NCBI RefSeq assembly: GCF_009905545.1
Contig: NZ_JAAALB010000039.1
Span: 1 to 58,702, forward strand
Direction: 5' to 3'
Source of the DNA: Cellulophaga sp. BC115SP
GTDB taxonomy: Bacteria; Bacteroidota; Bacteroidia; Cytophagales; Spirosomataceae
DNA: 58,702 nt
Part shown: piece after piece, positions 11,070-31,727 of the stretch
Layout of the letters: every line of letters begins with the position of its first letter
How positions within the stretch are numbered: position 1 is the stretch's first letter
Notes under the pieces: generated by a model
The model's database searches: none
Seen by the model: the letters and a program-made list of their open reading frames with translations, nothing else
What the model was told of the DNA's origin: nothing
Program-made: the position numbers and the translations under genes

Positions 11070-11720
11070 TTACAGTAATAGTAAAGTGGCAGATAAGCTG
11101 ATCGCCAAGCCGACCGCTACTCCTGCAATAATTTGAGAAAGTGTATGTGCCGCCAGTTGTAGTCGAGCCGAAAGCAAGAATCCTGCTAAAAGTACCAAGG
11201 CAACAAGAGTTCCAAGCAAATGTGCTTCAGGAAAATGAATCGCAATTCCTAAGATTGCACCTATTGTTCCTGATATACCAACAGCATGAGCAGATATTTT
11301 CCAGTACAAACTAACAAAAGATACTACTGCGATAGAAAATGTAATGCTACTCATAAGCACGGCCACTTCAGGAAATTGTTGAATGGATTTTGTATAAAAT
11401 GCCGTAATAATAGTATAAATAATCACAGTGAGGAGATAAGGCAATCGTCGGTCGCGAAGCGTTTGCATATCAAGGGTTTTGATATAGCCTAAACGGTAGA
11501 CGAAATAAATAGAAAGAGCAGGAACAAGAAAAGTCTGAAGAAATATCAAAATCAAAAGTCCTAACTTTAGACTTAGCATTCCAACTTTGGCTGCACTGTT
11601 AAAAAGCTCCAAGTTGGCGATAGCAGCAGGCGCTTGGTAAAAAATAATCCCAAACAGCAAGGTTGGCATAACTAGGGGATGTAGTACTACAGAGAGAATA
11701 TATGCGAGACGAGCGTTCAA
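11070..11720 (-). CDS. PAP2-like integral membrane protein
   Basis: 216 residues with about six membrane helices. Degenerate phosphatidic-acid-phosphatase motifs are visible in order: RDRRLPY (for KxxxxxxRP), ISAHAVGISG (for PSGH) and a last helix start ARLQLAAHTLSQIIAG (for SRxxxxxHxxxD). Catalytic residues are thus only partly kept: the second motif has a His without PSG and the third has no acidic residue. It may be a lipid phosphatase relative or a non-catalytic homologue. It lies 89 bp downstream of rpoN, with a hairpin between. Confidence 0.72.
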   Translation of the reverse strand: MNARLAYILSVVLHPLVMPTLLFGIIFYQAPAAIANLELFNSAAKVGMLSLKLGLLILIFLQTFLVPALSIYFVYRLGYIKTLDMQTLRDRRLPYLLTVIIYTIITAFYTKSIQQFPEVAVLMSSITFSIAVVSFVSLYWKISAHAVGISGTIGAILGIAIHFPEAHLLGTLVALVLLAGFLLSARLQLAAHTLSQIIAGVAVGLAISLSATLLLL

Positions 11721-11735
11721 AGTCGAGTAAAATAA

Positions 11736-11794
11736 AAGTGAATGATGAATTATTTTCTTGCAACAGCAAATTTAAAACTATTCATCATTCACTT
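11736..11794 (-). terminator. Hairpin after rpoN
   Basis: 15-bp perfect arms AAGTGAATGATGAAT (11736-11750) and ATTCATCATTCACTT (11780-11794) just after the rpoN stop. It probably ends or attenuates the rpoN transcript. No long T run follows, so activity is less certain. Confidence 0.65.
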
Positions 11795-11809
11795 ATGATA
11801 GACTCGCAA

Positions 11810-13279
11810 TTAAAGTTGTTTACGAAGGCGGGCTACTGGGATATTTAACTGTTCGCGATATTTTGCTACCGTTCTTCTAGCAATATTATACCCTTTTTCG
11901 TTTAAGTATTTTTCTAGTTTATCATCCGAAAGTGGACTTTTCTTAGGTTCATTTTCAATCAATTCTTTCAAGATATTTTTCACTTCTCGGCTTGAAGCAT
12001 CTTCGCCAGATTCGGTCGATATACCTTCTGAGAAGAAATACTTGAGCAGATATAAGCCAAATTCTGTTTGTACGGATTTGCTACTTGCCACCCTCGAAAC
12101 CGTCGATATATCCATCTCAATTTCGTTGGCAATATCTTTCAAAATCATTGGCTTGAGTTTTGATTCATCACCAGACAGGAAAAACTCTTTCTGATAATCC
12201 ACAATCGCTTGCATAGTTTTCAGAAGCGTTTGTTGGCGTTGTTTAATTGCGTCGATAAACCATTTGGCCGAATCCAGCTTTTGCTTGATAAACGTAACCG
12301 TTTCTTTTATTGATTTATTATTTTTGTCGCTTTTATCGTAGGTTTCGAGCATTTCATGGAATGAAGTACTCACTCGTAATTCTGGTGCATTTTTAGAATT
12401 CAAGAAAATCTCCAATTTGCCATTATTATTCGTCAGAATAAAATCGGGCATTAAGAATTGTGTCACACTCGAATCATCATCAGAAGCGCCAGGCTTGGGA
12501 TTCAGTTTGGTAATCAAGGAAATTGCTTCCTTCATTGCCTCATCACTGATATTGAGTCGTTTTTGGATTTTTTCGTAGTGTTTTTTCGAAAACTCCTCGA
12601 AGTATTCGTCTACTATACGAATAGCATCTTGAATACGCGGTTCGCTTTGGGGCTTACGGTCAAGTTGAAGCAACAAGCATTCTTTCAAATCTCTGGCAGC
12701 AATACCCGCTGGATCAAAAGTTTGAATGGCACGCAGAACCTCCTCGACTTCTTCAATGCTGGTATAAACACCTTGAGTAAAAGCAAGGTCGTTTACGATG
12801 GCCTGCAAAGGACGTCGAATATAGCCATCGGCTTCAATAGACCCGATGATTTGTTTTCCAATTGTTTCTTTTGTTTCGTCTAATCGAAGAAATCCGAGCT
12901 GAGTATTGAGGTGGTCTGTCAAACTTTCCACCATCATGATTGGCATTTCTTTTTCTTCTTCCTCCCCTCCATTTCCGTCACCCTGCATTTTGTAGCCACT
13001 ATAATCATCATGGAGGTAAGAGTCTATATCCAAATCTCTATCCTCATAGTCTGCGAATTCATCTTCTTTAAAGTCGTCGAATTCTTCATCAAATTCCTCC
13101 TTTTGCTCTTGGACATCATTGTCCATCTCCATGCCCTCTTCCAAAGCTGGATTTATTTCAAGCTCCTCTTCAATTCTAGCCGCCAGCTCAAACGTTGGAA
13201 TTTGCAAGAGCTTTATGAACTGAATCTGTTGTGGTGATAGTCGCTGCTGAAGCGACTGGTTTAAGGATAGTTTTTGCAT
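11810..13279 (-). CDS. rpoN: RNA polymerase sigma-54 factor RpoN
   Basis: 489 residues, full length for sigma-54. Order seen: Gln-rich activator-interaction region I (QKLSLNQSLQQRLSPQQIQF), a very acidic region II (about residues 45-110, with EEEEKEM), core-binding domain, then the DNA-binding part with an HTH (MDISTVSRVASSKSV) and the RpoN box ARRTVAKYRE near the C-terminus. It directs core polymerase to -24/-12 promoters that need AAA+ activators; none of these activators is in this window. It is divergent from asnS across about 370 bp. Confidence 0.97.
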   Translation of the reverse strand: MQKLSLNQSLQQRLSPQQIQFIKLLQIPTFELAARIEEELEINPALEEGMEMDNDVQEQKEEFDEEFDDFKEDEFADYEDRDLDIDSYLHDDYSGYKMQGDGNGGEEEEKEMPIMMVESLTDHLNTQLGFLRLDETKETIGKQIIGSIEADGYIRRPLQAIVNDLAFTQGVYTSIEEVEEVLRAIQTFDPAGIAARDLKECLLLQLDRKPQSEPRIQDAIRIVDEYFEEFSKKHYEKIQKRLNISDEAMKEAISLITKLNPKPGASDDDSSVTQFLMPDFILTNNNGKLEIFLNSKNAPELRVSTSFHEMLETYDKSDKNNKSIKETVTFIKQKLDSAKWFIDAIKQRQQTLLKTMQAIVDYQKEFFLSGDESKLKPMILKDIANEIEMDISTVSRVASSKSVQTEFGLYLLKYFFSEGISTESGEDASSREVKNILKELIENEPKKSPLSDDKLEKYLNEKGYNIARRTVAKYREQLNIPVARLRKQL

Positions 13280-13649
13280 ATTTTATGACATGTAAGGATT
13301 ACTGTAGAAACATCCATCAAGTTTGGTATGAGGTTTGAGGACGGTCTTTCTTTTCACCCTCTATCAACAATCTTGCCAATTTATCTGATAAAAATAATTA
13401 AGATGTTTGATAAATCCCAAATACAAATAATCATTTTACACAAACACCTATAAAACAAATACTTACATTTTTTAAAATTTTTCTACTACTTATAAAAAAC
13501 TTATGAAAAGCAATTCTTCATTCGGTAATTGACAGAATTGTAAGTAATTTTGAATAGTAGGTAACCAAAATGGCAATCCTATTTACTAAAATACTTACGT
13601 ATTGAAGTATAAAGAAGATTTATTCAAATACATTTTGTAAAACTAGACA
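13280..13649. other. Divergent rpoN/asnS promoter region
   Basis: About 370 bp, AT-rich, no coding frame. It must carry promoters for both directions. A near-match to the Bacteroidota -7 box (TACATTTTG) lies just upstream of asnS, but the spacing and the missing -33 partner make it weak. Confidence 0.45.
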
Positions 13650-15095
13650 ATGCAAATCAAACAAATCTTAGCAGAAGCAGCTGTAGGCTCAGAAATTACA
13701 GTAAAAGGCTGGGTAAGAACCAAGCGTGAATCAAAAAACGTAACTTTCATTAATATAAATGACGGTTCGGTTATTCACAATATCCAAGCTGTAGCTGAGG
13801 CAGGTGTTTTGAATGAGGAAACTCAAAAACTCATTACAACTGGTGCATGTGTAGCCATTACAGGAACTTTAATCGAGTCACAAGGTTCAGGTCAAAAAGT
13901 AGAATTACAAGTAAAATCTGCACTTGTATATGGTACTGCAGACCCTGAGAAATACCCATTACAACCTAAAAAACACTCATTGGAGTTTTTGAGAGAAATT
14001 GGTCACTTGCGTCCTCGTACAAATACATTCTCAGCAATTCTTCGTGTTCGTCACACTTTGGCTTATGCGATTCATAAATACTTCAACGACAATGGTTTCT
14101 TCTATCTTCATACTCCAATCATTACTGGTTCGGATGCTGAAGGTGCAGGTGAAATGTTTCGTGTTACTACGCTCGACCCTAAGAATCCGCCATTGAACGA
14201 AGACGGTTCTGTGAACTACAAAGAAGACTTCTTTGGTCGTGAAACAAACCTTACTGTATCTGGTCAGCTTGAAGGTGAATTGGGTGCGATGGCTTTGTCA
14301 AAGATATATACTTTTGGTCCTACTTTCCGTGCCGAAAACTCAAATACTGCTCGCCACTTAGCGGAGTTCTGGATGATTGAGCCAGAGGTTGCATTCTATG
14401 AATTGGAAGACAACATGGCATTGGCAGAAGATTTCACCAAATATGTTATCAGATATGCCCTTGAAAACTGCTATGATGACTTGGTATTCTTGGAAAGTCG
14501 CTTGAAAGAAGAGGAGAAAAACAAGAAACAAGAAGAACGTTCTGAATTGGCGCTTATCGAAAAATTGAAATTTGTGATTGACAACGAATATGTCAAGTTG
14601 ACATATACCGAAGCAATTCAAATTTTATTGAGCTCAAAACGCCATAAAGAAGGTAAATTCCAATATCCTGTAGCGTGGGGTATCGACTTGCAATCTGAGC
14701 ATGAGCGTTATTTGGTAGAAAAACACTTCAAAAAACCAGTTATCTTAACCAACTATCCGAAAGATATCAAGGCTTTCTATATGAAACTAGATGAGGTTTC
14801 TGAGGGTGTTCCAGGACAAACTGTACGTGCTATGGACGTATTATTCCCAGGTATTGGTGAAATCATTGGTGGTTCACAACGTGAAGATAACTATGAAAAA
14901 TTGGCACAACGTTGTCAAGAAGTAGGTATCCCTATCGAATCTATTTGGTGGTATTTGGAGACTCGACAGTTTGGTACAGCTCCTCACGCTGGTTTCGGTA
15001 TTGGTTTCGAACGTTTGGTGATGTTTGTTACAGGTATGACCAATATTCGTGACGTAATTCCTTTCCCTCGTACGCCAAAAACTGCTGAGTTCTAG
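13650..15095 (+). CDS. asnS: Asparagine--tRNA ligase
   Basis: 481-residue class IIb aminoacyl-tRNA synthetase charging tRNA-Asn. An N-terminal OB-fold anticodon-binding domain (about 1-110, with [21 protein letters not shown] split over residues 21-42) is followed by the catalytic domain with motif 2 [19 protein letters not shown] and motif 3 [13 protein letters not shown] charged insert ([13 protein letters not shown]) around residue 290 is common in Bacteroidota AsnRS. Since AsnRS is present, the GatCAB system indicated by gatC at the window end is more likely needed for Gln-tRNA. Confidence 0.97.
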
Positions 15096-15175
15096 GAAAT
15101 AGTTAGTAATTATACGTATATCTGTTATCAGAAAATAAGATATATCTTGTATGCTACAGAAATAACCGATTTTAT

Positions 15176-15220
15176 AGGTTGTGTTGATGTTTGAAAAAAT
15201 GTTGACACAACCTTTTTTAT
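15176..15220 (+). terminator. Terminator of asnS
   Basis: Arms AGGTTGTGT and ACACAACCT around a 20-base loop, followed by TTTTTT, 80 bp beyond the asnS stop. Confidence 0.85.
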
Positions 15221-15360
15221 TATTCAGCATTTGTATCATTTATTTAAAATCCAGACATTGGTATTGAATCTCTACCGTTATGGTAAAATGATTGAAAATG
15301 GATATCTTTATTTGAAAATACACTTCAAAGTCAACATACGCATTTAAACTCTTTTTTGAT

Positions 15361-15828
15361 ATGAAAAAAATTATATTAACCTTCTCCATCTTCCTAGGTA
15401 TTACGGCATCACTATCTGCCCAATCGGCTGATGAAACTGCTGTAAAAGCGGTAATCGACCAGCTATTTGCAGGTATGCAAAAACATGACACCACTATGAT
15501 TAAAGCGGTATTTCACCCATCTATCCGAATGCAGTCGATAGGAATGAGTCGAAAAACCCAGCAAATGGAGCTTACAACCGAAAATGGAATTGTCGATTTT
15601 GTCAAACAAATTGGCTCACTCCCTGCCAGTTTGGCAATTGAAGAAAGATTATTGAGCTATGAAATCAGAATTGATGGGCAGATGGCAACCGCTTGGACTC
15701 CTTATGAATTTTATGCCAATGGTAAATTTAGTCATTGTGGCGTTGATGCCTTCCAGCTTTTCAAAACCCCAGAAGGTTGGAAAATCATCGCACTAGCAGA
15801 TACTCGTAGAAAAGATTGTGGCAAGTAA
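15361..15828 (+). CDS. Secreted NTF2-like (SnoaL/DUF4440-type) protein
   Basis: 155 residues. A signal peptide is predicted at the N-terminus (MKKIILTFSIFLGITASLSA, cut near AQS). The mature part has the cone-shaped NTF2-like pattern: helix DETAVKAVIDQLFAGMQ, KHDTTMIKAVFHP, and a C-terminal strand WKIIALADTRR. Such domains bind small molecules or act as simple enzymes; no catalytic set is identifiable. It probably acts in the periplasm. The gene is monocistronic between two terminators. Confidence 0.8.
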   Translation: MKKIILTFSIFLGITASLSAQSADETAVKAVIDQLFAGMQKHDTTMIKAVFHPSIRMQSIGMSRKTQQMELTTENGIVDFVKQIGSLPASLAIEERLLSYEIRIDGQMATAWTPYEFYANGKFSHCGVDAFQLFKTPEGWKIIALADTRRKDCGK

Positions 15829-15897
15829 GTATAAATGCTGAGTTGTGAATTAAGAATTGTGAATTTAATTCCTAATTAGCCACATTTAACCATATTA

Positions 15898-15986
15898 CCT
15901 AGTTCGAGACTTAGTCTCTGACTATAGCCTTTGCTTTAGTTTTAAAACTGTTTCAAAATAAGTCCAAGACTAAGTCTTGAACTAGG
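15898..15986. repeat. 20-bp inverted repeat with 49-bp spacer
   Basis: Arms CCTAGTTCGAGACTTAGTCT (15898-15917) and AGACTAAGTCTTGAACTAGG (15967-15986) match at 19 of 20 positions. There is no T tract, so this is not a simple terminator. It lies between the NTF2-like gene and the ATPase/HNH pair and could be a mobile-element footprint or an operator. Confidence 0.8.
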
Positions 15987-16022
15987 CATTGTCATTTAGG
16001 CACATTAAAGCATTAATTTAAT

Positions 16023-16051
16023 AGGTCAGTTCAAGGGACTGGCCTTTTTTT
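16023..16051 (+). terminator. Terminator upstream of the ATPase gene
   Basis: Arms AGGTCAGT and ACTGGCCT (one G-U pair) around a 7-base loop, then seven T. It insulates the ATPase/HNH pair from upstream transcription; the pair starts 31 bp later. Confidence 0.75.
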
Positions 16052-16081
16052 AGTTATTTTGCGAGGAAAATATCCATTACC

Positions 16082-17452
16082 ATGAAGCTAACAGAACTAC
16101 ATATCAAAGACTATAATCAATTTGAAGATTTCAAATTAGACCTCACCTATCCTAAAGGACACCCAAAAGCAGGTCAAGCCTTGGATAAAGTATGTTTTAT
16201 TGGTCAAAGTGGTACTGGAAAGACTAGTTTGATAGAATTACTAAGGAAAACTATGTTTACAATCTCTAGTGAGAGAGTACTAAATGCGTTGCTTGATAAA
16301 AAAAACAATGAATGTACTGTACTTGGTAATGAACAATTAAATGATATTGAATTTAGCAGGAATGGAATATCTATCAAATTAGATCAGGAAATTAACTTTA
16401 CATTTGATAGATATGATGATAAAAATGATTTTTCCAATAATGGAGAATCCTTTGTTTTAAAGGCGATTGGCTTAAACAAAGATATTGTCAACTTATTATC
16501 GAACAAGTCTAAGATATTTTATTACCCTTACGACATATCCTATTCATCTAATATTCAATTAGTGAATAACGATTTTATTCCTCTATTATTGGATACTACT
16601 CTATATGACTTTAGTAAACTTAGTTTACAAAATAGTTGGTCTTTTATCAATGAAAAAATAATAAAAGACCGAGAACTTGAAATCAAAAAAAGCCTAGAAA
16701 TATCTAAAGCCTTACAAAATCCCAAATTAACAAATGAAGATATTTTAAAGGCTAGAGAGGAGTTTTTTAACTGGCGTAAAAACTCACCAAATCCAATTGT
16801 CGATCTTGCAGAAAAATTTCTCGATAGAATCTTAAATCGTTTTAACCTAAAAGTAAAAACCGAGCTAGATTTTGAGAGAAAGGAAGATATAGAAACTATC
16901 AAAATTCAAACTCGACAAGGCGAGGATATACCTTTTGATGCCCTCAGTACAGGTACAAAACAAGTGATACTTACGGCATTGCCTCTTTATGGTCTAAAAC
17001 CTGAAAAAGCAATTATTCTTTTTGATGAGCCTGAAAGGTCGTTATATCCTGATATTCAAAAGGAAATTGTTGATTTTTATACGAGTATGGCAAAAGATAG
17101 TCAATTCTTTTTTGCTACACACTCACCCCTTATCGCTTCCTCATTTGAACCGTGGGAAATTGTAGAATTAAAGTTTAACGAAAAAGGTAAGGTATATCAA
17201 GAGAAATATTATGAAGGAGAGAACCATGTCGATAACTACACTATTAATCCTCAGTATTTGACATGGACAGGTATTTTACAAAAGGTTTTTGACTTAGAAC
17301 AAGAAAGTAATCCACTGAGAGATAGACAATTGATAGAGTTAGCAACCTTGGAAAGTAAGTTAAAGCATAACTCATTAAGCCTTGAAAAGAAAAAGGAAAC
17401 CTTTGAGAAATATCAAAAACTAGCTACACTATTAAATTGGGAATTGAAATAA
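16082..17452 (+). CDS. AAA/ABC-type ATPase of a Septu-like pair (PtuA-like)
   Basis: 456-residue SMC/RecF-style ATPase without membrane parts. In order: an N-terminal strand with KDYNQFEDF, Walker A GQSGTGKT (41-48), a variable helical middle, ABC-type signature LSTGTKQ (289-295), Walker B IILFDEPE (311-318), H-loop ATHSP (345-349) and a C-terminal charged helix, likely coiled coil (405-450). Such stand-alone ATPases work with nucleases in phage defence (Septu PtuA, OLD/Gabija-type). The HNH-like gene follows after one base, so the two are translationally coupled. PtuA identity is inferred from layout and motifs, not from an alignment. Confidence 0.78.
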   Translation: MKLTELHIKDYNQFEDFKLDLTYPKGHPKAGQALDKVCFIGQSGTGKTSLIELLRKTMFTISSERVLNALLDKKNNECTVLGNEQLNDIEFSRNGISIKLDQEINFTFDRYDDKNDFSNNGESFVLKAIGLNKDIVNLLSNKSKIFYYPYDISYSSNIQLVNNDFIPLLLDTTLYDFSKLSLQNSWSFINEKIIKDRELEIKKSLEISKALQNPKLTNEDILKAREEFFNWRKNSPNPIVDLAEKFLDRILNRFNLKVKTELDFERKEDIETIKIQTRQGEDIPFDALSTGTKQVILTALPLYGLKPEKAIILFDEPERSLYPDIQKEIVDFYTSMAKDSQFFFATHSPLIASSFEPWEIVELKFNEKGKVYQEKYYEGENHVDNYTINPQYLTWTGILQKVFDLEQESNPLRDRQLIELATLESKLKHNSLSLEKKKETFEKYQKLATLLNWELK

Positions 17453-17453
17453 G

Positions 17454-18110
17454 ATGAAAAAAATAGACAAATCAGTCATACTATCTACAGCCTATAAAGA
17501 ATGGGAAGAAAATCTGGAAGCGCATCAGCATCCTCATCCTGCATATAATTCATCAAAAGGAATGTTCTATCATGACATAATCATGAATCTATATCATTGT
17601 CAAAATGGATTATGTGCATACACAGAAAAATCACTCATTCTAACAGGTTTAGAAAATCATTGTTGGAATCAAGAAGGACGCTATTCAGCAGATTTACCAT
17701 CTCATTTTGGGGAATTAGAGCACTTTGATGAAAGTTTAAAATCCAATAAAGGTTGGCTATGGGATAATTTATTTATGGTTGACGGAAAAATTAATCGTAA
17801 AAAAAGTTCAAAAGGAATAGATAATATTTTAAAGCCTGATTTACCAGAATATGACCCCTTCTTATTACTTTCTTATGATGGCAAAAAACATATCTTTTTT
17901 GCCAATACACAGAATACAGATTTAACAGAAGAGGATATCAAAAGCATCAATGATATGATAGATATTCTTGGTATAAACTACGTCAAAGATTGGAGACGAA
18001 AGGAGATAACCTCAAGAATAAAAGCCTTAGAATTTGGTCTTGAACCTGTTCCACTTACTGAATACCCTACTGCATTCGAAATGACCAAACGAAATTTAGG
18101 TTTAGTATAA
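17454..18110 (+). CDS. HNH-like protein of a Septu-like pair (PtuB-like)
   Basis: 218 residues. Pattern close to TIGR02646/PtuB HNH proteins: CAYTE (54-58) where CxxCE is usual, GELEHF (86-91, the first catalytic His of the EHF motif), WLWDNL (101-106) and NRKKS (114-118) in place of the NLxxxCxxCNxxK stretch, then DPFLLL (134-139). The zinc-knuckle cysteines are mostly missing, so the metal site is either reduced or lost. It sits one base after the ATPase and ends where the dgkA region begins. It might be a divergent nuclease effector or an inactive homologue; another unknown family is also possible. Confidence 0.68.
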   Translation: MKKIDKSVILSTAYKEWEENLEAHQHPHPAYNSSKGMFYHDIIMNLYHCQNGLCAYTEKSLILTGLENHCWNQEGRYSADLPSHFGELEHFDESLKSNKGWLWDNLFMVDGKINRKKSSKGIDNILKPDLPEYDPFLLLSYDGKKHIFFANTQNTDLTEEDIKSINDMIDILGINYVKDWRRKEITSRIKALEFGLEPVPLTEYPTAFEMTKRNLGLV

Positions 18111-18137
18111 TTGTTAAACCAATACCATTATTTTCCC

Positions 18138-18512
18138 ATGATTCAATTTCCCAAATTTTTTAAAAGCCTCAGTTATGCTTTTCAGGGCTTAGGAATGTTA
18201 CTGAAAGAAAATAACTTTCGGATACATCTACTTATCTTCGGCTTTGGGCTTTTATTTGGTTGGTTTTTCGATATTAGCGTTACGGAGTGGCTATTTGTGA
18301 TATTGGGTAATGGACTAGCTATTGCCTCGGAAGGGTTTAATTCTGCCATTGAGGCGGTTGTAGATTTGGCTTCTCCAAACTTCCATCCTTTGGCGAAAAA
18401 AGCCAAGGATATTGCTGCTGGCTCAGTTTGGATTACGGCGATGGCTTCTATGATTTGCCATATTATTATCTTTTTACCTAAAATTATCAATTTCATAGAA
18501 AGTCTTTTATAG
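18138..18512 (+). CDS. Diacylglycerol/undecaprenol kinase family protein
   Basis: 124 residues from the ATG at 18138 (a TTG at 18111 would add nine unlikely residues). Small trimeric DgkA-type membrane kinase: an amphipathic N-terminal helix, three membrane helices, and the signature EGFNSAIEAVVDL (active-site Glu and Asn) followed by KDIAAGSV. In Gram-positives this family phosphorylates undecaprenol; in Gram-negatives diacylglycerol. Either recycles a lipid carrier. It is immediately followed by a copy of the dispersed palindromic repeat that supplies its terminator. Confidence 0.9.
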   Translation: MIQFPKFFKSLSYAFQGLGMLLKENNFRIHLLIFGFGLLFGWFFDISVTEWLFVILGNGLAIASEGFNSAIEAVVDLASPNFHPLAKKAKDIAAGSVWITAMASMICHIIIFLPKIINFIESLL

Positions 18513-18516
18513 AAAC

Positions 18517-18721
18517 ATGAGTCATCCCGAATTTTAAGATTGGGGTTATTCTCTAAGCTTTCATCAAAAAAGCGGTCGAAAAATATTTTTCGACCGCTTT
18601 TTTGATGAAACTATGCTAGATTTTACCCAGCTTAAGACGCAATCATTGCGTCTCTACTGCCACAATACAAATTTTAAATTAATCACTCATTCATTCAATC
18701 ACTAAATTCGGAATGACTCAT
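18517..18721. repeat. Dispersed palindromic repeat, copy A (complete)
   Basis: 205-bp element with 18-bp terminal inverted repeats, ATGAGTCATCCCGAATTT at 18517-18534 and its complement at 18704-18721, matching at 17 of 18. Inside are a 48-bp perfect palindrome (18561-18608), a smaller AGACGCAATCATTGCGTCT palindrome (18635-18653) and a tail containing AATCACTCATTCATTC. It fills the gap between dgkA and the FG-GAP gene. Related copies are at 31844, 38786 and 42235, with an inverted partial copy at 31728. Confidence 0.9.
18561..18608. terminator. Bidirectional hairpin inside repeat copy A
   Basis: 48-bp perfect palindrome with GCGGTCGAAAAA/TTTTTCGACCGC core and AAAAAA/TTTTTT edges. It ends the plus-strand dgkA transcript and the minus-strand FG-GAP transcript. 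Confidence 0.9.
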
Positions 18722-18728
18722 GTTTTTC

Positions 18729-21700
18729 TTACTGAATCTTATAAGCTTTTGGCGCTTGCTGATTGATACCAAAAACTATCGTTTGATTTAGTTGTAGCAC
18801 CGAACGAACGTCGCCTTTGATTTTCAGCCCTGACTTATTCTGTGGAATGGTTACAAAATTTCCTTTTCCATCGCCTTGTAAAAGTAAACCATAATTGGCA
18901 TCAGATTTTCCAAATTTGAGTCGAGTGATATTTTGATTACCTGCTAGCAATATATCTTTCTTACCGTCTTTGTTGTAGTCAAATATCAACAGGTTGTACA
19001 CTGGTGCAAATTGTGCCTCTATCGGTAACGCTTTTTCTTCAAATTTGCCTTGTGCATTCAAGGTAAAATATCCTGTCTTGAGATAATTAGCTGTTAACTT
19101 TTCGGCACCTTCTAGTTCTTTGTCGTCAAAAATATCTTTTAACGTGGCATCTCCATAACTGTCGTAGCTCGTGAATTTTTTACGCTTAATGGTAAGTTGT
19201 TCAAGCAATTCGTCACGGGTAAGATAAGGATATGACTTTCCTTGAACGTAAGTACACAAAATTGGATCGACAGTTCCGTTTTGGTCAAAATCTTTGAAAT
19301 ATAATTCGGCAGGTTCTTTAAAACTTACTTTACATTGACTGTTAAGCCCTTGATTTCCTAATAAGATTTCTGGCTTGCCATCACCATTCAAGTCTTCAAC
19401 GATGATTTTATTCCACCAACCTTGATAATTTTTATCAAAGTACTTATCCGTCTGATTTTCTATCTTATTTCCTTGTATAGTAAATACCGAAATAGGCATC
19501 CATTCGCCCACAACAAGCAGTTCTTGCTTTTTATCTTGATTCAAATCCACAAAAGCAGCGTCTGTCACCATACCAATTTTTTGTAATTCTGCTGGGGTTT
19601 GATCTTTGAAAGTGCCATTGCCTTGGTTAATGAGGATATAACTTCGTGGTGTTTCTGGATATCTGCCAGGAATTACTCTTCCCCCTACAAACAAATCAGG
19701 TTTTCCATCTTGATTGACATCGCCTACTCGTACGCAACCCGTGCTTACTGGCATAGCAGGCAGAGCAGAAGCGCTCAACGTAAATCCGCCTTTGCCGTTA
19801 TTGATAAATAGTTGGTCTTGAAGCAATGGATCATTTTCGGTGAAATTTCGATACCCGCCATAAGCCACATACAAGTCTACTTTTCCATCGCCATTGGCAT
19901 CGAAGAAAGTAGCGTCGCTTATATCAGCATTGGTTTTGGTATTAATACTTTGTTTGCTGAACCCATTGACTTTATTTTGGATAAATAACTCACTATTTTT
20001 ACCAAAACACCCCCCTACAAATACATCCTCCAAGCCATCTTGATTCACATCGGCTTTAATCATGACTGGTCCAACGAATGACATCGCTTGCGTGAGTAAC
20101 GACTGACGCTTAAAATCATTTTGAACTATCGTTGCCGCTGCGCTTTGAATAGGGGAGTTGGTTTCGACTAAATAGGTATTAACCACTGATTGTTTAGGAG
20201 CACTATCCGTCGCATTTTTCTCTTCCAATACTAAGGCTTGGTCTGCTTTAACATTTTTCAAAACTTGTACTTTACCGCTTGCCCAAGTAACCTTCAGTGA
20301 ATCAATTGTTTGTGATTTTCCTAAGCCAAAGTGGAGTTCAAAACTTACATTTGATTGGAAACCACGAGTTGGCATTTGCTCTTGTTGTTGTGAATTCCCA
20401 GAAGCGTATATTCTAACCGTTGTTCCGATTCCCATGGTGTTGGGAGCATTTCCTTTGAACTGAATATTGAGGTAGTGATTCTCAGACTTTTGCTTGCTTT
20501 CATTCTGGTAAATAAAGGCAGGAAGATTGATGTTATTGACCACCAAATCCAAATCGCCATCTTTATCAAGGTCGCTATAGGCAGCGCCACTGCTATTTGA
20601 TGGACGACTTAAGCCCCATTTGTCGGATAAATTGGCAAATTGGAGATTGCCTTTGTTACGGAACATGTAATTACTTACATTGGAAGAAGGCATTTTTTTG
20701 ACCAACTCCAATACATCTTCACGCTGAAAACCACCCTGTTTTTTCTTGATGAAATCATCCATATATTTCAAAAAGTCCAAATTAGTATAGTCATGCAAAT
20801 AGCCATTGGTTACATACAAATCTTTCCAGCCATCGTTGTCATAATCTGCAAAAAGTGCTGACCAGCTCCAGTCTGTATTCGAAATACCCGATACTTGTCC
20901 AATTTCACTAAATGAGCCGTTCCCGTTGTTTAAATGCAACATATTGCGCATATATTGGTGGTGAAAACCTGATTGTACGCTCAAGTCAAACTTGTAATAG
21001 TTGTCGGGAGCCATCAGTAATTTTTGACGACGATTGTCTTCTGGCAACATATCCAAGGTAAAAATATCTGGCAATAAATCATTGTTAATATCAGCTACAT
21101 CGTTGCCCATCGAAAAGTTAGAGGTATGCCCTAATTGCTCAAGACTAACCTCCGAAAACCCTCCTTTTTGATTGTTGAGATACAACCTATCAGGAACCGC
21201 GTAGTCGTTGCTTACATAAATATCCGGCCAGCCATCTTGGTTAAAGTCTGCAATTCCTGCTCCTAAACCATACGAAAGAGCCGAACTTTGAATACCCGCC
21301 TGACTTGTAATATCTCTAAAATACCCTTTATCATTGGTATAAAATCTTGAACCACTTACCGAGTCATCTACTTTCAGTAACTCGGCAGTATCTGACAAAT
21401 TGAGTACTGGAAGTGATTTGATATTATGATTTAACAGAAAAAGGTCGAGATCACCATCTTTGTCGGCATCAAAGAAATAAGCATTTGTGCTCGAAGCAGG
21501 GCTATCTAAGCCATATTTTGTAGCCTCCTCCAAAAATGTCGGAATACCATTGGCATCATTTCCCTGATTGATAAAAAGCTCGTTGGCTTTTTTCTCTGGA
21601 CGAAGATTCCCAGAATGACACACGTAAATATCTAGTTTGCCATCGCTATTAATATCCACCATCGTAACGCCAGTCTTCCAAGGACCTTGGCGACCAGCTA

Positions 21701-22046
21701 CACCAGCTTGGGCAGTAATATCTTGAAACGCCATTTGAGTTTTGTTCAAATAAAGCTTGTTTTCATTCATATTACTGGTAAAATACAAATCATCATAACC
21801 ATCTCCATTGACATCGCCCACGGCAACGCCTCCACCATTATAGAAGTACTCGTACATGAGTACGTTGGTATTGAGCCCTTCGTCTATTACGTTTTGGAAA
21901 TCCACATGAGTTTTTTCTGCAGGTAGTAAGGTGAAAAGCTCATCGGGAGACTCATCATCTTCCGAGGGAGCTTTGGAGGAATCTGTACAACTGATGAGAA
22001 TACTTGTACAGAGAATGAGAAAGGTTGAATAGGAAAAAATTTTCAT
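18729..22046 (-). CDS. FG-GAP/VCBS and ASPIC/UnbV repeat lipoprotein (CRTAC1-like)
   Basis: 1105 residues. A lipoprotein signal with Cys20 in ILISC. Then many FG-GAP/VCBS repeats with calcium-loop patterns such as DVNGDGYDDLYF, DINSDGKLDIY and DKDGDLDLFLL, predicted to form beta-propellers. An ASPIC/UnbV domain lies near 540-620 (GIGTTVRIY, HFGLGKSQTIDSLKVTWASG), followed by a second FG-GAP block to the end. Probably at the outer surface, binding carbohydrate or protein. It is divergent from susC across 784 bp and so likely shares control with that locus. Confidence 0.93.
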   Translation of the reverse strand: MKIFSYSTFLILCTSILISCTDSSKAPSEDDESPDELFTLLPAEKTHVDFQNVIDEGLNTNVLMYEYFYNGGGVAVGDVNGDGYDDLYFTSNMNENKLYLNKTQMAFQDITAQAGVAGRQGPWKTGVTMVDINSDGKLDIYVCHSGNLRPEKKANELFINQGNDANGIPTFLEEATKYGLDSPASSTNAYFFDADKDGDLDLFLLNHNIKSLPVLNLSDTAELLKVDDSVSGSRFYTNDKGYFRDITSQAGIQSSALSYGLGAGIADFNQDGWPDIYVSNDYAVPDRLYLNNQKGGFSEVSLEQLGHTSNFSMGNDVADINNDLLPDIFTLDMLPEDNRRQKLLMAPDNYYKFDLSVQSGFHHQYMRNMLHLNNGNGSFSEIGQVSGISNTDWSWSALFADYDNDGWKDLYVTNGYLHDYTNLDFLKYMDDFIKKKQGGFQREDVLELVKKMPSSNVSNYMFRNKGNLQFANLSDKWGLSRPSNSSGAAYSDLDKDGDLDLVVNNINLPAFIYQNESKQKSENHYLNIQFKGNAPNTMGIGTTVRIYASGNSQQQEQMPTRGFQSNVSFELHFGLGKSQTIDSLKVTWASGKVQVLKNVKADQALVLEEKNATDSAPKQSVVNTYLVETNSPIQSAAATIVQNDFKRQSLLTQAMSFVGPVMIKADVNQDGLEDVFVGGCFGKNSELFIQNKVNGFSKQSINTKTNADISDATFFDANGDGKVDLYVAYGGYRNFTENDPLLQDQLFINNGKGGFTLSASALPAMPVSTGCVRVGDVNQDGKPDLFVGGRVIPGRYPETPRSYILINQGNGTFKDQTPAELQKIGMVTDAAFVDLNQDKKQELLVVGEWMPISVFTIQGNKIENQTDKYFDKNYQGWWNKIIVEDLNGDGKPEILLGNQGLNSQCKVSFKEPAELYFKDFDQNGTVDPILCTYVQGKSYPYLTRDELLEQLTIKRKKFTSYDSYGDATLKDIFDDKELEGAEKLTANYLKTGYFTLNAQGKFEEKALPIEAQFAPVYNLLIFDYNKDGKKDILLAGNQNITRLKFGKSDANYGLLLQGDGKGNFVTIPQNKSGLKIKGDVRSVLQLNQTIVFGINQQAPKAYKIQ

Positions 22047-22830
22047 GCTTGTTAAATAGACAGTTTTAAAGGGTCTGCTTGATTTAGATTTTGTTAATTA
22101 ATAAGCCATTTTACCACTTTGGATTGGTAAGCTACTTATTGCTTAAGAGTTATAACTACTGAAAACTACCCAATTTTCTCGAATTTTTTAAAGAAGATAT
22201 AGAGAAAAAGAAGGAAAAAGTAATCTCATCAAGCACTTCATGTATGGCGAAACAAAGAGTACTAAAAAGTGCTTGCTCTAACATTTTTTTTCGATTGAAG
22301 TGAGTATTGAGCATTCCTCAAAAGGTAGTGGAGTAATCTTTAATAAAAATATTTAAAATATTTATAAAGTATCGTTTTACTCAATAAGGTATAGTTTTAA
22401 GGCGCTTTAAAATATACTTTTCATAGATGCATATTTCAGACATATTCTTCTTTTATCGTATTATATTGACATTAATCAATAAGTATGCAGACCAATTGAC
22501 TGTTTTATGATAAATTTTATTCTTTTTGTGCAAATGTTTGCACAGCCGTATTTATTCAAAAAACCAGAAAAAATAAAATAATTCTCAATTTTATGAATAA
22601 TGGTATGGGTATAAAAAGTACAACTATTTCTTAATTTGTTAAAAGTATGTCTGTGCTTAGACCCCACTTTCATACTACAGGCGAGCTTGTGCATGATGGC
22701 TTGACCATATCTATCTAAAGTAATAATAACTATGAAAATTTCGGACGACTGCGTGTTCAAGATTGAGCATTGCCTCAATACCTACGTGTATTTATTCCAA
22801 TCCCATTACAATTCCATAACATAAAAAATT
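22047..22830. other. Divergent regulatory region of the SusCD/haloperoxidase locus
   Basis: 784 bp between the minus-strand FG-GAP gene and susC. It is very AT-rich with no coding frame of credible composition. The part near 22640-22700 is more GC-balanced. No clear TAnnTTTG box, operator repeat or known riboswitch was found. No SusR, HTCS or sigma/anti-sigma gene flanks it, so the regulator must be elsewhere. Confidence 0.5.
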
Positions 22831-25800
22831 ATGATTAATTCTACTCAGTGGAAGCATCAGAGTCGGAGAATTTGTTTTCTGACTTTGGGGTTCATTTTTA
22901 TGGTTTTTGCTAATACACTTGCCCAAAGTGTAAAAGGAAAAATCACTGATGACAAAGGTCAAGGTTTGCCCGGGGTCAACATTTTAGTGAAGGGCACTAG
23001 CGTCGGTACTACATCCGATGTCAATGGTGTGTATTCAGTGAATGCTGGTAAATCTGCGACATTGGTTATTACCTCAGTTGGGTTTATTTCCCAAGAAGTA
23101 TCTGTGAATAATCGTTCTGTTGTTGACGTTGCACTTGCTACAGATGTCAAATCTCTCGAAGAGGTTGTTGTAGTAGGTTACGGTACGCAGAAAAAAGTGA
23201 CTGTTACAGGTGCTGTTGTTGCAGTACAAGGTGAGAAAATTTTGAAATCACCAGCAGTGGATTTATCAAACTCATTGGCAGGTCGCTTGCCAGGCTTGGT
23301 TGTTGTCCAACAAAGTGGTGAGCCAGGAAACGATGGTGCAAGTATTTCGATTCGTGGTACAAACACCCTTGGTAACAGTAGTCCGCTTGTTGTAATCGAT
23401 GGTATTCCTGATCGTGATGGTGGTTTGGGTCGTTTGAACCCACGTGACATCGAATCGATTTCGGTATTGAAAGATGCTTCGGCGGCAATTTATGGTGCTC
23501 GTGCTGCAAACGGTGCTATCTTGGTAACTACCAAAAGAGGTAAGTCTGGTAAACCAACAATTACTTATGACATGAACCTTGGTTGGGCTCAACCAACAAA
23601 AGTTCCTCAAATGTCAAGTGCTGTGGAGTATGCTAAAATCATGAATGAGCTTCCGATTTACAAAAACATTCCAGCAGGCGAGTGGGGTGCAGCATGGCAA
23701 AGTATCCAAAACACAGGTACTTACAAGTCTCCAACTGCAGGTGTTGGTACAATCAATGCGAATTATAGCCCAGATGCTGTGAAGAAATACGCTGATGGTT
23801 CAGACCCTTGGCGTTATCCAAATACTGACTGGTTTGGCGATGCATTCAAAACTTGGACGCCACAAACTCGTCATAACTTACAGTTATCGGGTGGTTCTGA
23901 AAATATGCGTTATATGGCTTCTTTGGGCTATGTTTCACAAGATGCGTACTACAAAAATTCAGCTACTAACTATCACCAATACAACTTCAGAACAAACCTT
24001 GATGCCAAAATCAATAAGTACATTAGTGCTAACTTGGGTATCATGGTGCGTCGTGAACAACGTAGATATCCTACTGAAAGTGCAGGTTCAATCTTCCGTA
24101 TGTTGATGCGTGGTCGTCCGACTGAGCCAGAAGTTTGGCCAAATGGAATGCCAGGTCCAGATATTGAAAATGGTCAAAACCCTTATGTGATTACAACTAA
24201 TGCTACAGGTTATGTAGATAACCCAACAGACTATGTGCAATCAAACGGTTCAGTAATCTTGACTAACCCTTGGGTAGATGGTTTGAAAGTAACTTTGTCA
24301 GGTGCTATCGATAAAAATAGCCAGACAAGTAAGACTTGGCAAACACCTTGGATGTTGTACTATTGGGACAAGCAAACCTATCAATCTGATGGTGTAACGC
24401 CTTTGTTAGTAGGAGCCATTCGCTCAAACTTTACTGATCCACGTTTAACTCAATCATACAGTAATGTTTTGAATACCAACTTGACTGCTATGATTAACTA
24501 CGACAAGAAATTTGGTGCAGACCATAACTTGAGTTTCTTGGCTGGTGTAACTCGTGAGACATTCGATGGCGACAACTTCTTTGCTTACAGACGTAACTAT
24601 ATTTCTTCGGCGGTTGACCAATTGTTTGCAGGTGGTTCATTACAACAAAATACAGGTGGTAGTGCTTACAACCGTGCTCGTTTGGGTTACTATGGTCGTG
24701 TGCAGTATAACTACAAAGAGAGATATTTGTTAGAATATATCTGGCGTTATGATGGTTCTTATATATTCCCAGGTGCTCACCGTTTTGGTTTCTTCCCAGG
24801 GGTGTTAGTAGGTTGGAACATTTCTAACGAAGATTTCTTCAAAGTTAAAGGTATTGACAATTTGAAACTTCGTGCTTCTTATGGCCAAATGGGTAACGAC
24901 CAAGTATTCTTCAACAATCAATTGCAAGAATATGCTTACTTGTCGACATTTGGCTTTGGACAGTACCCAATCAACAACCAAGTTGTAACAACCTTGAATG
25001 AGACGGTTTTAGCAAACCCTAACTTTACTTGGGAACGTGCCAATAACTATAACATAGGTATTGATGGTTCATTCTTAAACAACAAGATTAACCTAACATT
25101 GGAGTATTTCTACAACAGAAGAGATCAAATCTTGATTCAGAAAACAGGTTCAACACCAGCATCTTCAGGTATCAACTCTTTGTTGCCTCCAGTAAATGCA
25201 GGTATTGTTGACAACCGTGGTTTTGAATTCAATGTATCCTATAACGGAAAAGCATCAAAAGATTTGACTTTCAGAGCTTCTGTAAACGGAGGTTATGCTA
25301 AAAACAAGGTAGTGTTTATGGATGAAGTACCAGGAGCTCCTAGTTACCAGCTACAAGAAGGTAAGTCTATTGGTGGATATTTGGTGTATGAATATGATGG
25401 TGTATTTAAAAACACTGCTGATATTGATGCAAACAAATTAGACTACTCGGCAGTAACGTCAAAATTGATACCTGGCGATATGAAGTTTAAAGATGTAAAC
25501 GGCGATGGTAAAATCAATGGTGATGACCAAGTAAGATTAGACCAAAATGCAACACCAACATTCAACTTTGGTGCTACTATTGATGTTCGTTACAAAGGCT
25601 TTGATGTAAGTGCACTCTTCCAAGGTGCTATGGGTGCTGCTATTCGTATTCAAACAGAATCGGGTGACATCGGTAACTATTTGAAATACTCTTATGATCA
25701 CAGATGGTCAGTAGACAACCCAAGTAGTGTAGACCCACGTTTGGCAAGTAGAGGAGATACCTACTTTACTGGCGGTAACTACGGTAACAATACCTATTAC

Positions 25801-26028
25801 CTATTTAGTAAAAACTATGTTCGTTTGAAGAACATCGAATTAGGCTATAATTTTCCAAGTAATATTACTGAGAAGTTAAAATTAGGAAGTTTGAGAGTTT
25901 ATGTCAATGCATTGAATTTGTTGACAATTGACAAAAACAAAATCTTTGACCCAGAGGCGACTGCTCAAGGTGGTGTGTACTACCCACAATCACGTGTGAT
26001 AAATGCAGGTTTGAGTCTAACCTTCTAA
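22831..26028 (+). CDS. susC: SusC/RagA family TonB-linked outer-membrane transporter
   Basis: 1065 residues. Signal peptide ending near ANTLAQS, then a carboxypeptidase-regulatory-like domain (VKGKITDDKGQGLPGVNILV, with TSDVNGVYSV), a plug domain (GRLPGLVVVQQ, SIRGTNTLG, PLVVIDGIP) and a 22-strand barrel ending in aromatic Phe (AGLSLTF). There is a calcium-loop-like DVNGDGKINGDDQ near residue 893. It imports an oligomeric ligand with energy from TonB and pairs with the SusD lipoprotein starting 14 bp downstream. No TonB-interacting anti-sigma segment (STN) is visible at the N-terminus. The ligand is unknown. Confidence 0.95.
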   Translation: MINSTQWKHQSRRICFLTLGFIFMVFANTLAQSVKGKITDDKGQGLPGVNILVKGTSVGTTSDVNGVYSVNAGKSATLVITSVGFISQEVSVNNRSVVDVALATDVKSLEEVVVVGYGTQKKVTVTGAVVAVQGEKILKSPAVDLSNSLAGRLPGLVVVQQSGEPGNDGASISIRGTNTLGNSSPLVVIDGIPDRDGGLGRLNPRDIESISVLKDASAAIYGARAANGAILVTTKRGKSGKPTITYDMNLGWAQPTKVPQMSSAVEYAKIMNELPIYKNIPAGEWGAAWQSIQNTGTYKSPTAGVGTINANYSPDAVKKYADGSDPWRYPNTDWFGDAFKTWTPQTRHNLQLSGGSENMRYMASLGYVSQDAYYKNSATNYHQYNFRTNLDAKINKYISANLGIMVRREQRRYPTESAGSIFRMLMRGRPTEPEVWPNGMPGPDIENGQNPYVITTNATGYVDNPTDYVQSNGSVILTNPWVDGLKVTLSGAIDKNSQTSKTWQTPWMLYYWDKQTYQSDGVTPLLVGAIRSNFTDPRLTQSYSNVLNTNLTAMINYDKKFGADHNLSFLAGVTRETFDGDNFFAYRRNYISSAVDQLFAGGSLQQNTGGSAYNRARLGYYGRVQYNYKERYLLEYIWRYDGSYIFPGAHRFGFFPGVLVGWNISNEDFFKVKGIDNLKLRASYGQMGNDQVFFNNQLQEYAYLSTFGFGQYPINNQVVTTLNETVLANPNFTWERANNYNIGIDGSFLNNKINLTLEYFYNRRDQILIQKTGSTPASSGINSLLPPVNAGIVDNRGFEFNVSYNGKASKDLTFRASVNGGYAKNKVVFMDEVPGAPSYQLQEGKSIGGYLVYEYDGVFKNTADIDANKLDYSAVTSKLIPGDMKFKDVNGDGKINGDDQVRLDQNATPTFNFGATIDVRYKGFDVSALFQGAMGAAIRIQTESGDIGNYLKYSYDHRWSVDNPSSVDPRLASRGDTYFTGGNYGNNTYYLFSKNYVRLKNIELGYNFPSNITEKLKLGSLRVYVNALNLLTIDKNKIFDPEATAQGGVYYPQSRVINAGLSLTF

Positions 26029-26042
26029 AAACGTAATTTAAC

Positions 26043-27926: not shown

Positions 27927-27949
27927 TCCTATCCCTAATCCAAATATCA

Positions 27950-27977
27950 ATTAGGCAGTCAGAAATGACTGCCTAAT
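27950..27977 (+). terminator. Hairpin after susD
   Basis: Perfect 12-bp arms ATTAGGCAGTCA and TGACTGCCTAAT with GAAA loop. The T tract is weak, so it may be a stabilising 3' hairpin or a leaky terminator. Confidence 0.75.
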
Positions 27978-28156
27978 TTGGTTAAATCGTTTTACATCTC
28001 TGGAGATGCTTTACCACTAATTCAATGATTTATTTTACTTTATGATTTTATCAATATAAAATATACATATATTGTGCACTAATCAGTCAATATTAGAGTT
28101 GTACTACTAGGTAGAAGGCATTTGACTTTTCCTCTTTCAACGTAAATTTATAAAAT

Positions 28157-29530: not shown

Positions 29531-29986
29531 TGAAGCGGTAAGGATTCGCCTTGTTATTGCCTTCATAGGTAGTAAATCAAGGTGGAATACACCACTTCTA
29601 AGTCATTTTAAATATTAATGTTGAATTGTGAGTGATGGATTAATGGTGTAAGGTATTGATAATTAAAACTTACATCAGAAATTCGTAACTCATTATTCGG
29701 CACTAAAAACCTACAAGTATAAATACTAAAACATCTAACATAGCTCAAGTTTGACACCTACCACTAGTTATTAACCCAACGAGCTACTGTTATACTACTT
29801 GATATTTGAATGATACCTTTAGTCTCATTCATGATACTCACGTTGACCATACTTGGCACTCTACTTATTTTAAGGATTGATTATGTTTTGCAGTTATACG
29901 ATTGCAAGGTGTTTCTTATGTAGTCTACTGGACGGATGTTATGTCTTTTCAGGGCTATTCTCTTTCATGTCTTTAAGCAAATTTCT
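29531..29986. other. Gap between haloperoxidase and CRTAC1 genes
   Basis: About 455 bp with no coding signal. It contains a stretch of the TTGAATTGTGAGTGATGG type that recurs in other gaps of this window (for example near 15840 and 6580). No clear promoter box or terminator. Confidence 0.45.
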
Positions 29987-31681: not shown

Positions 31682-31727
31682 GCATTTTATGGATAAATGA
31701 ATGAGCGATAAAGAAAGGGGGCATCCC

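What the first reader, a model, noticed from the sequence alone, without database searches (positions are those of the whole stretch)
16082..18110. Septu-like ATPase/HNH pair with a reduced zinc site
Two genes one base apart: an SMC-style ATPase with intact Walker A (41-48), signature (289-295), Walker B (311-318) and H-loop, and a 218-residue protein with the EHF and N-RKK pattern of PtuB-type HNH proteins but with CAYTE where CxxCE is expected and no second cysteine pair. The order and spacing match Septu (PtuA/PtuB). The pair sits between unrelated housekeeping genes, behind a terminator and a 20-bp inverted repeat, as an insertion would. A divergent or non-canonical Septu subtype is plausible.
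Basis: partly seen in the sequence, partly recalled or inferred. Interest (0 to 1): 0.7.

Follow-up and report, generated by a model that had tools for sequence, protein, structure and literature searches.

The report
Septu defence with swappable ATPase centre
This two-gene bacterial anti-phage system is a Septu with a zinc-less nuclease, and the middle of its ATPase is replaced wholesale between some close relatives, as if bacteria exchange the part that may recognise the virus.

Summary
The pair at 16082-17452 and 17454-18110 is a Septu: PtuA matches PADLOC PDLC00274 (249 bits) and the PtuB model's best PDB matches are PtuAB complexes. The missing zinc cysteines are not damage: 40 of 40 relatives lack the second pair, while 20 of 20 canonical Septu PtuB of the same bacterial family keep both. 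One sister genome has an empty site, another a decayed relic.

The unexpected part is inside PtuA. Against Flectobacillus longus about 420 bp after Walker A are unalignable, between flanks of 97-100% (left) and 88-100% (right, from 16883) DNA identity. In 19 Spirosoma-type systems at one chromosomal locus the PtuA centre varies independently of the PtuA C-terminus and PtuB (rho 0.00-0.08; AU tests reject shared trees), while neighbouring genes agree (rho 0.66-0.84). RecN shows no such thing. Exchange is not universal: some close pairs keep the centre, and one E. coli Septu type shows none. The centre is a recombining module; that it senses the phage is my inference. Ordinary as a family member, interesting as a modular immune receptor.

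The parts
16082..17452 (+). ptuA: 456-aa ABC/SMC-type ATPase of Septu
   Evidence: AAA_15 9.3e-20, AAA_21 2.7e-18; PDLC00274 249 bits; Foldseek: retron I-A PtuA 9n6b 1.4e-13, E. coli PtuA 8sux 5.8e-13; TM-scores only 0.36-0.48
16082..16243 (+). conserved PtuA N-terminus through Walker A (residues 1-54)
   Evidence: 97-100% DNA identity to F. longus at 16045-16224; Walker A key residues invariant in 14 of 14
16244..16642 (+). hypervariable first part of the exchangeable module (about residues 55-187; lobe I strands and a helix in the model)
   Evidence: 40-48% DNA identity to F. longus in a forced alignment; blastn gap 16252-16635; module-only query finds itself and one weak, apparently unrelated ORF in 222 genomes
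16643..16942 (+). transition, helical part (about residues 188-287), 67-98% identical to F. longus; belongs to the exchanged module in Spirosoma systems
16943..17452 (+). PtuA C-terminal part: signature, Walker B, H-loop, C-terminal helices; varies together with PtuB
   Evidence: C-PtuB rho 0.72, p 0.001 in 19 Spirosoma-type systems
17454..18110 (+). ptuB: 218-aa HNH nuclease without structural zinc cysteines
16000..16060 (+). terminator-like hairpin (GGTCAGT...ACTGGCC then T run) ahead of ptuA; also in the empty site, so it belongs to the upstream gene
   Evidence: read by eye; no terminator scan was run

Best explanation
The pair is a retron-less Septu. PtuA is the ATP-dependent sensor and scaffold; PtuB is an HNH nuclease that keeps the catalytic His/Asn/Asn but has lost the structural zinc ribbon. 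On infection the complex is activated and PtuB cleaves nucleic acid (activity inferred from E. coli homologues; target unknown here). The stretch of PtuA between Walker A and the ABC signature is a separate module that is replaced by recombination, most simply homologous recombination through the conserved flanks, independently of the C-terminus and PtuB. The likeliest role of the module is to recognise the phage trigger. Shown: Septu identity by sequence and fold, clade-wide zinc loss, exchange of the centre in several lineages. Inferred: sensor role, nuclease activity, recombination route.
For: Identity; an ORF over 100 aa bearing EHF or DHF lies directly downstream in 41 of 41 loci examined (34 distinct). 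Exchange: window versus F. longus and G235 versus G245, unalignable centres between nearly identical flanks. 19 systems, all between gh3 and dxr-rseP (19 of 19): first versus second part of the module rho 0.68 (p 0.001), C-terminus versus PtuB rho 0.72 (p 0.001), module parts versus C or PtuB rho 0.00 to 0.08 (p 0.16 or more). AU tests reject the backbone tree on module data (p 6.7e-74) and the module tree on backbone data (p 4.3e-9). Positive control: flanking genes against each other rho 0.66-0.84. Negative control: RecN, an ABC-type ATPase, in 30 of 36 genus genomes: the stretch after Walker A is 86% identical on average, 76% at least. Sensor inference: in PARIS the related ATPase AriA senses phage proteins (PMC12409363, PMC11455837; passages), and here the C-terminus, not the module, tracks PtuB.
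Against: No experiment shows that the module senses anything or that this locus defends. NCBIfam PtuA and PtuB cut-offs are not reached; fold TM-scores are moderate for PtuB (0.51-0.62) and low for PtuA (0.36-0.48). Not every close pair differs: of the 4 pairs with a PtuA C-terminus at least 90% identical, the centre is 96, 86, 50 and 22% identical. One E. coli Septu type shows no exchange in 14 of 14 genomes. Over all 34 systems, which include deep clades, the centre does correlate with the C-terminus and PtuB (0.59, 0.60; C-PtuB 0.89). In the 19 systems the N-terminus correlates with nothing either. PtuB can vary on its own: L015 and L016 have 98% identical PtuA C-termini but 77% identical PtuB. 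The PtuA model is of middling confidence (pLDDT 76.8, parts of the module under 50).
Confidence: 0.6

Rival explanations
1. The module is disguise: it varies to escape phage-encoded inhibitors that bind PtuA, and plays no part in recognising the trigger.
For: The same pattern of exchange would be expected. Phages do act against PtuAB in E. coli, though by supplying tRNA, not by binding PtuA, in the passages I saw.
Against: Exchange of about 130-250 residues, lobe I core included, is more than surface variation needs (inference); no such inhibitor is known to me.
Confidence: 0.2
2. The module sets the substrate (which tRNA or DNA is cut), not the trigger.
For: Published PtuAB differ in target: tRNA-Tyr for retron-Eco7 and Septu EcB88, nicked DNA reported for E. 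coli ATCC 25922 Septu, as stated in PMC11555353 and PMC13096335 (passages).
Against: The module does not track PtuB, the nuclease (rho 0.04-0.08).
Confidence: 0.12
3. The centre is simply under weak constraint and has diverged quickly in place; no exchange.
For: Its G+C is lower (26.8% against 32-34% in the rest of the pair), and it varies in length.
Against: Unalignable segments between nearly identical flanks, and like modules on unlike backbones (L111/L120: module parts 70 and 67%, PtuB 57%; L111/L114: module parts 16 and 24%, PtuB 86%) need exchange. AU tests.
Confidence: 0.04
4. The pair is not a defence system but a resident housekeeping ATPase/HNH pair.
For: Constant chromosomal position in Spirosoma, 17 of 36 genomes; no relative confirmed in IMG/VR contigs or phage records, and no PtuB in plasmids.
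Against: Patchy presence, an empty site and a decayed relic among close sisters; fold match to Septu and retron effectors.
Confidence: 0.06

Closest known systems
Septu of PADLOC families PDLC00274 (PtuA) and PDLC00347 (PtuB)
   Same: Window PtuA 249 bits, PtuB 27 bits; one Spirosoma member fits at 566 and 214 bits; same gene order, CxxTE, no second cysteine pair
   Different: The window and its nearer relatives have a longer PtuB (212-243 aa where complete, against 193-199) that fits the PtuB profile only weakly
E. coli Septu (PDB 8eea, 8ee4, 8ee7, 8sux)
   Same: PtuA and PtuB folds; 8ee7 PtuB shows CxxSE, not CxxCE, in a weak aligned piece
   Different: 13-16% identity over the Foldseek alignments; by sequence the PtuA match is confined to residues 309-369
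Retron I-A effectors PtuA/PtuB (Ec78/Eco7, Ec83)
   Same: ATPase plus HNH pair; closest PDB fold matches
   Different: No reverse transcriptase among the neighbouring genes and no Rfam hit; NCBIfam cut-offs not met; retron Ec78 PtuB has CAYCE
Canonical Septu of the same genome (contig C45, locus L097)
   Same: ATPase then HNH gene; its family shows a variable centre in some close pairs, e.g. L146/L147 PtuB 90%, C-terminus 96%, centre 19%
   Different: Both zinc cysteine pairs kept (20 of 20 in that family); overall its centre still correlates with C-terminus and PtuB (0.28-0.47)
PARIS (AriA)
   Same: Related ABC ATPase: AriA profile 4.2e-21, 8v46 by fold; sensor-plus-nuclease logic
   Different: Effector AriB is a Toprim nuclease, not HNH (passages of PMC12409363)
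Conflict-system sensors diversified by diversity-generating retroelements (PMC10907252)
   Same: Diversified putative sensors in bacterial conflict systems (listing and start of abstract only)
   Different: There by error-prone reverse transcription; here whole segments differ between alleles, as by recombination

Membership tests
Septu | PtuA: ABC/SMC-type ATPase matching Septu PtuA models | tested here: met
   PDLC00274 2.7e-74, 249 bits; fold; NCBIfam NF041760 PtuA, a retron Ec78 model, 41 bits against cut-off 500, not met
Septu | PtuB: HNH nuclease downstream of ptuA | tested here: met
   The 7 Foldseek matches below E 0.001 are entries of PtuAB complexes, with chains of PtuB length (205-258); H90, N105, N114 invariant in 15 of 15; profile scores weak: NF041761 27 bits against 150, TIGR02646 17.9 against 52.15
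Septu | Two adjacent genes, ptuA then ptuB, inherited together | tested here: met
   41 of 41 loci (34 distinct) have the partner ORF; L017 and the relics were not in that set
Septu | Patchy presence in close relatives | tested here: met
   Of 5 genus genomes: intact in G000, G001, G004 (G004 elsewhere than beside asnS), relic in G002, empty in G003; core PtuA in 40 of 222 family genomes
Septu | Blocks phage; PtuB cleaves nucleic acid | not testable with these tools
   needs experiment
Classical TIGR02646 HNH with zinc ribbon | CxxC ... CxxC structural zinc site | tested here: not met
   0 of 40 clade members have a second CxxC in the 45 residues after EHF/DHF; fourth position T 36, S 3, K 1
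Retron type I-A | Reverse transcriptase and msr-msd beside ptuAB | tested here: not met
   Neighbours are sigma-54, a tRNA synthetase, a SnoaL-like gene, dgkA and an FG-GAP protein; Rfam none at gathering score in 15000-19000
PARIS | AriB Toprim nuclease partner | tested here: not met
   Partner has the PtuB/HNH fold

The most novel reading that the evidence does not exclude
Septu PtuA is a modular immune receptor: bacteria keep the system at a fixed chromosomal place and re-target it by exchanging the sensor module of the ATPase (about 130 to 250 residues), leaving the nuclease half untouched, much as type I restriction systems exchange target-recognition domains (comparison recalled, not tested).
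Probability: 0.42. Interest if true: 0.82.

Novelty: new variant of a known kind. Interest (0 to 1): 0.6.

Why it matters
In the passages I saw, the activator of retron-less Septu is not named; one paper tested a tail sheath protein and excluded it (PMC13096335). A naturally exchanged module points to the part of PtuA to test, and the alleles at one locus are ready-made chimaeras. Searches for PtuA with 'hypervariable' gave 0 papers; the searches listed none whose title or abstract start describes this. They cover open-licence PMC only. The zinc-less PtuB clade also suggests that the structural zinc of this HNH family is dispensable.

Tried and rejected
Tried without result: PtuB in PLSDB plasmids and INPHARED phages, none; PtuA in plasmids only weak, mostly C-terminal matches in 7 records, in phages none; both proteins in IMG/VR, no relative confirmed; an E. 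coli plasmid homologue was found in 1 of 5426 genomes and told nothing about exchange; donor copies of the window module or of the F. longus module elsewhere in the own genome: none found. Pfam on the two modules alone gave nothing below E 0.1; PADLOC gave one weak match for the window module, E2, 5.9e-4 over 47 residues, taken as chance.

Rejected: damage or misassembly as cause of the missing cysteines (clade-wide); inverted repeat as insertion mark; recent arrival only (tRNA synthetase, SnoaL-like gene, ptuAB in the same order also in another genus, G039, and a relic in G002); a variable centre limited to the zinc-less clade (canonical pairs L146/L147 and L160/L158 show it too). Not done: the pdb_via second look; generality outside Bacteroidota beyond one E. 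coli type.

Rows dropped: one search was given 41 of the loci then held (L017 and relics left out). One search used 34 systems: those 41 less 8 (7 duplicate copies, the window itself among them, and L060 whose ptuB is cut by the contig end), plus the window; L021 kept although its ptuB is cut. One search used the 17 loci plus two from other genera (L074, L076); other matches without a locus were not included. RecN 30 of 36 (locus cap); canonical Septu 20 of 23 matches (L153, L161, L164 incomplete). One search was a failed script, repeated. A first count (3 of 20 canonical with both cysteine pairs) used too tight a spacing; one search gives 20 of 20. One search compared partial dxr (dxr-backbone 0.11); one search repeats it with full-length genes.

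Full report
WHAT IS THERE. The two ORFs are as described: 16082-17452 (456 aa) and 17454-18110 (218 aa), one base apart. Upstream are a class-II tRNA synthetase (asnS) and a SnoaL/lumazine-binding-like ORF, downstream dgkA. The nearest named relative found is Flectobacillus longus LYT7W (PtuB 94%), so the window is probably from a Flectobacillus-like bacterium.

FAMILY. PtuA matches Pfam AAA_15 and AAA_21 and PADLOC PtuA1 PDLC00274 with 249 bits. PtuB has no Pfam hit and only weak family hits: NF041761 PtuB 3.2e-6 and TIGR02646 0.0024, both below curated cut-offs, PADLOC HNH_I-A 2.7e-10 and several PtuB1 models. AlphaFold2 on an alignment of 15 gives pLDDT 85. The 7 PDB matches with E below 0.001 are entries of retron Ec78, Ec83 and E. 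coli PtuAB complexes, with chains of PtuB length, TM-scores 0.51-0.62; Cas9 HNH domains follow at E 0.05 and weaker. The PtuA model (pLDDT 77) matches retron I-A PtuA, E. coli PtuA and AriA, with low overall TM-scores (0.36-0.48 in the rows shown). The pair is a Septu by sequence and fold. No reverse transcriptase or Rfam RNA accompanies it.

ZINC SITE. C54, E58, H90, N105 and N114 are invariant in 15 of 15 aligned relatives. Over 40 members of the clade the fourth residue of the motif is T in 36, S in 3, K in 1, and none has a second CxxC after EHF/DHF. In 20 of 20 canonical Septu PtuB from the same bacterial family, including a second Septu in the same genome (L097), both cysteine pairs are present (locus). 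The E. coli Septu PtuB 8ee7 shows CCYSE in a weak aligned piece. So this is an HNH clade that has dispensed with the structural zinc but kept the catalytic residues; mutation of the H-N-H residues H75 or N91 abolishes defence in E. coli Septu EcB88 (PMC13096335, passages; their correspondence to the residues here is my reading).

SITE HISTORY. In sister G003 the window aligns up to 16070 and again from 18134, with about 30 bp between: an empty site. In sister G002 the place holds a relic of ptuB with several stops and, by eye, a scrap of the ptuA end. G039, another genus, has the tRNA synthetase, the SnoaL-like gene and ptuAB in the same order. The pair is thus an old resident with losses, or repeatedly regained.

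THE EXCHANGED CENTRE. Window and F. longus PtuB are 94% identical and PtuA 72%, which is odd for one operon. The cause is local: DNA identity is 97-100% at 16045-16224, 40-48% at 16225-16642, 67-88% to 16882, and 88-100% per 60-column block from there to 18498. blastn finds no match for 16252-16635 although 11333-16251 and 16636-18514 match at 90 and 93%. Neither centre has a relative in 222 family genomes beyond one or two weak, apparently unrelated hits. Two Spirosoma genomes, G235 and G245, show the same: 97-100% over the first 120 bases of ptuA, 77% to +179, 35-67% from +180 to +950, 75% to +1010, 90-100% after that; PtuB 98%.

TEST. 17 of 36 Spirosoma-genus genomes carry the system. With two from other genera, 19 of 19 lie between a GH3-family gene and dxr-rseP (family names by Pfam). 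Distance matrices: first and second part of the module rho 0.68, C-terminus and PtuB rho 0.72 (both p 0.001); the four module-versus-C or module-versus-PtuB comparisons 0.00 to 0.08, p 0.16 or more. The N-terminus correlates significantly with nothing (rho -0.03 to 0.13). Module and backbone trees reject each other in AU tests. Neighbouring genes agree with one another (0.66-0.84) and not with the module (0.01-0.08); C-terminus plus PtuB agree weakly with the neighbours (0.14-0.20; p 0.07, 0.015, 0.024), so the whole operon is probably also replaced at times. RecN of 30 of the 36 genus genomes has 86% mean identity in the matching stretch, and its parts correlate (0.34-0.59, p 0.001).

WIDER SET AND LIMITS. 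Over 34 systems the centre is the least conserved part and falls into 16 groups without detectable similarity to one another (blastp E below 1e-4 as link). But deep clades make centre and backbone correlate there (0.59, 0.60, against 0.89 for C-PtuB); among the 21 non-Spirosoma systems the values are 0.22, 0.24 and 0.76. Of the 4 pairs with C-terminus at least 90% identical the centre is 96, 86, 50 and 22% identical: exchange is frequent, not constant. In 20 canonical Septu pairs of the same bacterial family some close pairs show it (L146/L147: PtuB 90, C 96, centre 19%; L160/L158: C 83, centre 16%) and one does not (L145/L148: centre 82, C 91%); overall correlations of module parts with C and PtuB are 0.28 to 0.47, p 0.011 or less. 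In E. coli one Septu type is full length at 93-100% identity in all 14 of 5426 genomes that hold it, with no replaced centre.

MECHANISM. The module runs from just after Walker A to the signature motif: lobe I strands, then long helices. The C-terminus, which here varies with PtuB, would be the nuclease-holding half. In the related PARIS system the ATPase AriA senses phage proteins and holds the nuclease (PMC12409363, PMC11455837; passages). By analogy I assign trigger recognition to the module; this is inference. Exchange could run by ordinary homologous recombination through the conserved P-loop and C-terminal coding regions; no donor copy of either Flectobacillus module was found elsewhere in the own genome.

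KNOWN OR NEW. Membership in Septu is known in kind (PADLOC holds the clade). What I did not find in print is the exchangeable centre: 'PtuA' with 'hypervariable' returned 0 papers; searches listed none that describes it by title or abstract start. The library lacks most subscription papers, including the E. coli PtuAB structure paper.

Noticed in passing
L097 (own genome, contig C45) 7915-9872, - strand: Second, canonical Septu in the same genome with both zinc cysteine pairs (PADLOC PDLC00281 423 bits, PDLC00351 188 bits).
   Followed up: partly
G002:C6:792959-793389 (L043): Decayed relic of ptuB with several stops and, by eye, a scrap of the ptuA end at the site where the window has the intact pair.
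   Followed up: partly
L015 versus L016: PtuA nearly identical (96-98%) but PtuB residues about 26-125 only 52-68% identical (rest 72-96%): PtuB can apparently vary or be exchanged on its own.
   Followed up: no
window 15899-15985: Imperfect inverted repeat (19-bp arms, 49 bp apart) upstream of ptuA; a more compact palindrome of the same sequence stands in the empty site of G003.
   Followed up: partly
L098 5800-6111, L099 4746-5057: Small nucleotidyltransferase (NTP_transf_2) gene next to ptuA in two Spirosoma genomes; a homologue lies on the other side of the pair in L082.
   Followed up: no
window 18515-31722 versus L013 7083-12654: Just downstream of dgkA, synteny with F. longus breaks; the neighbouring stretch of F. 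longus matches window 26088-31722 in reverse orientation.
   Followed up: no
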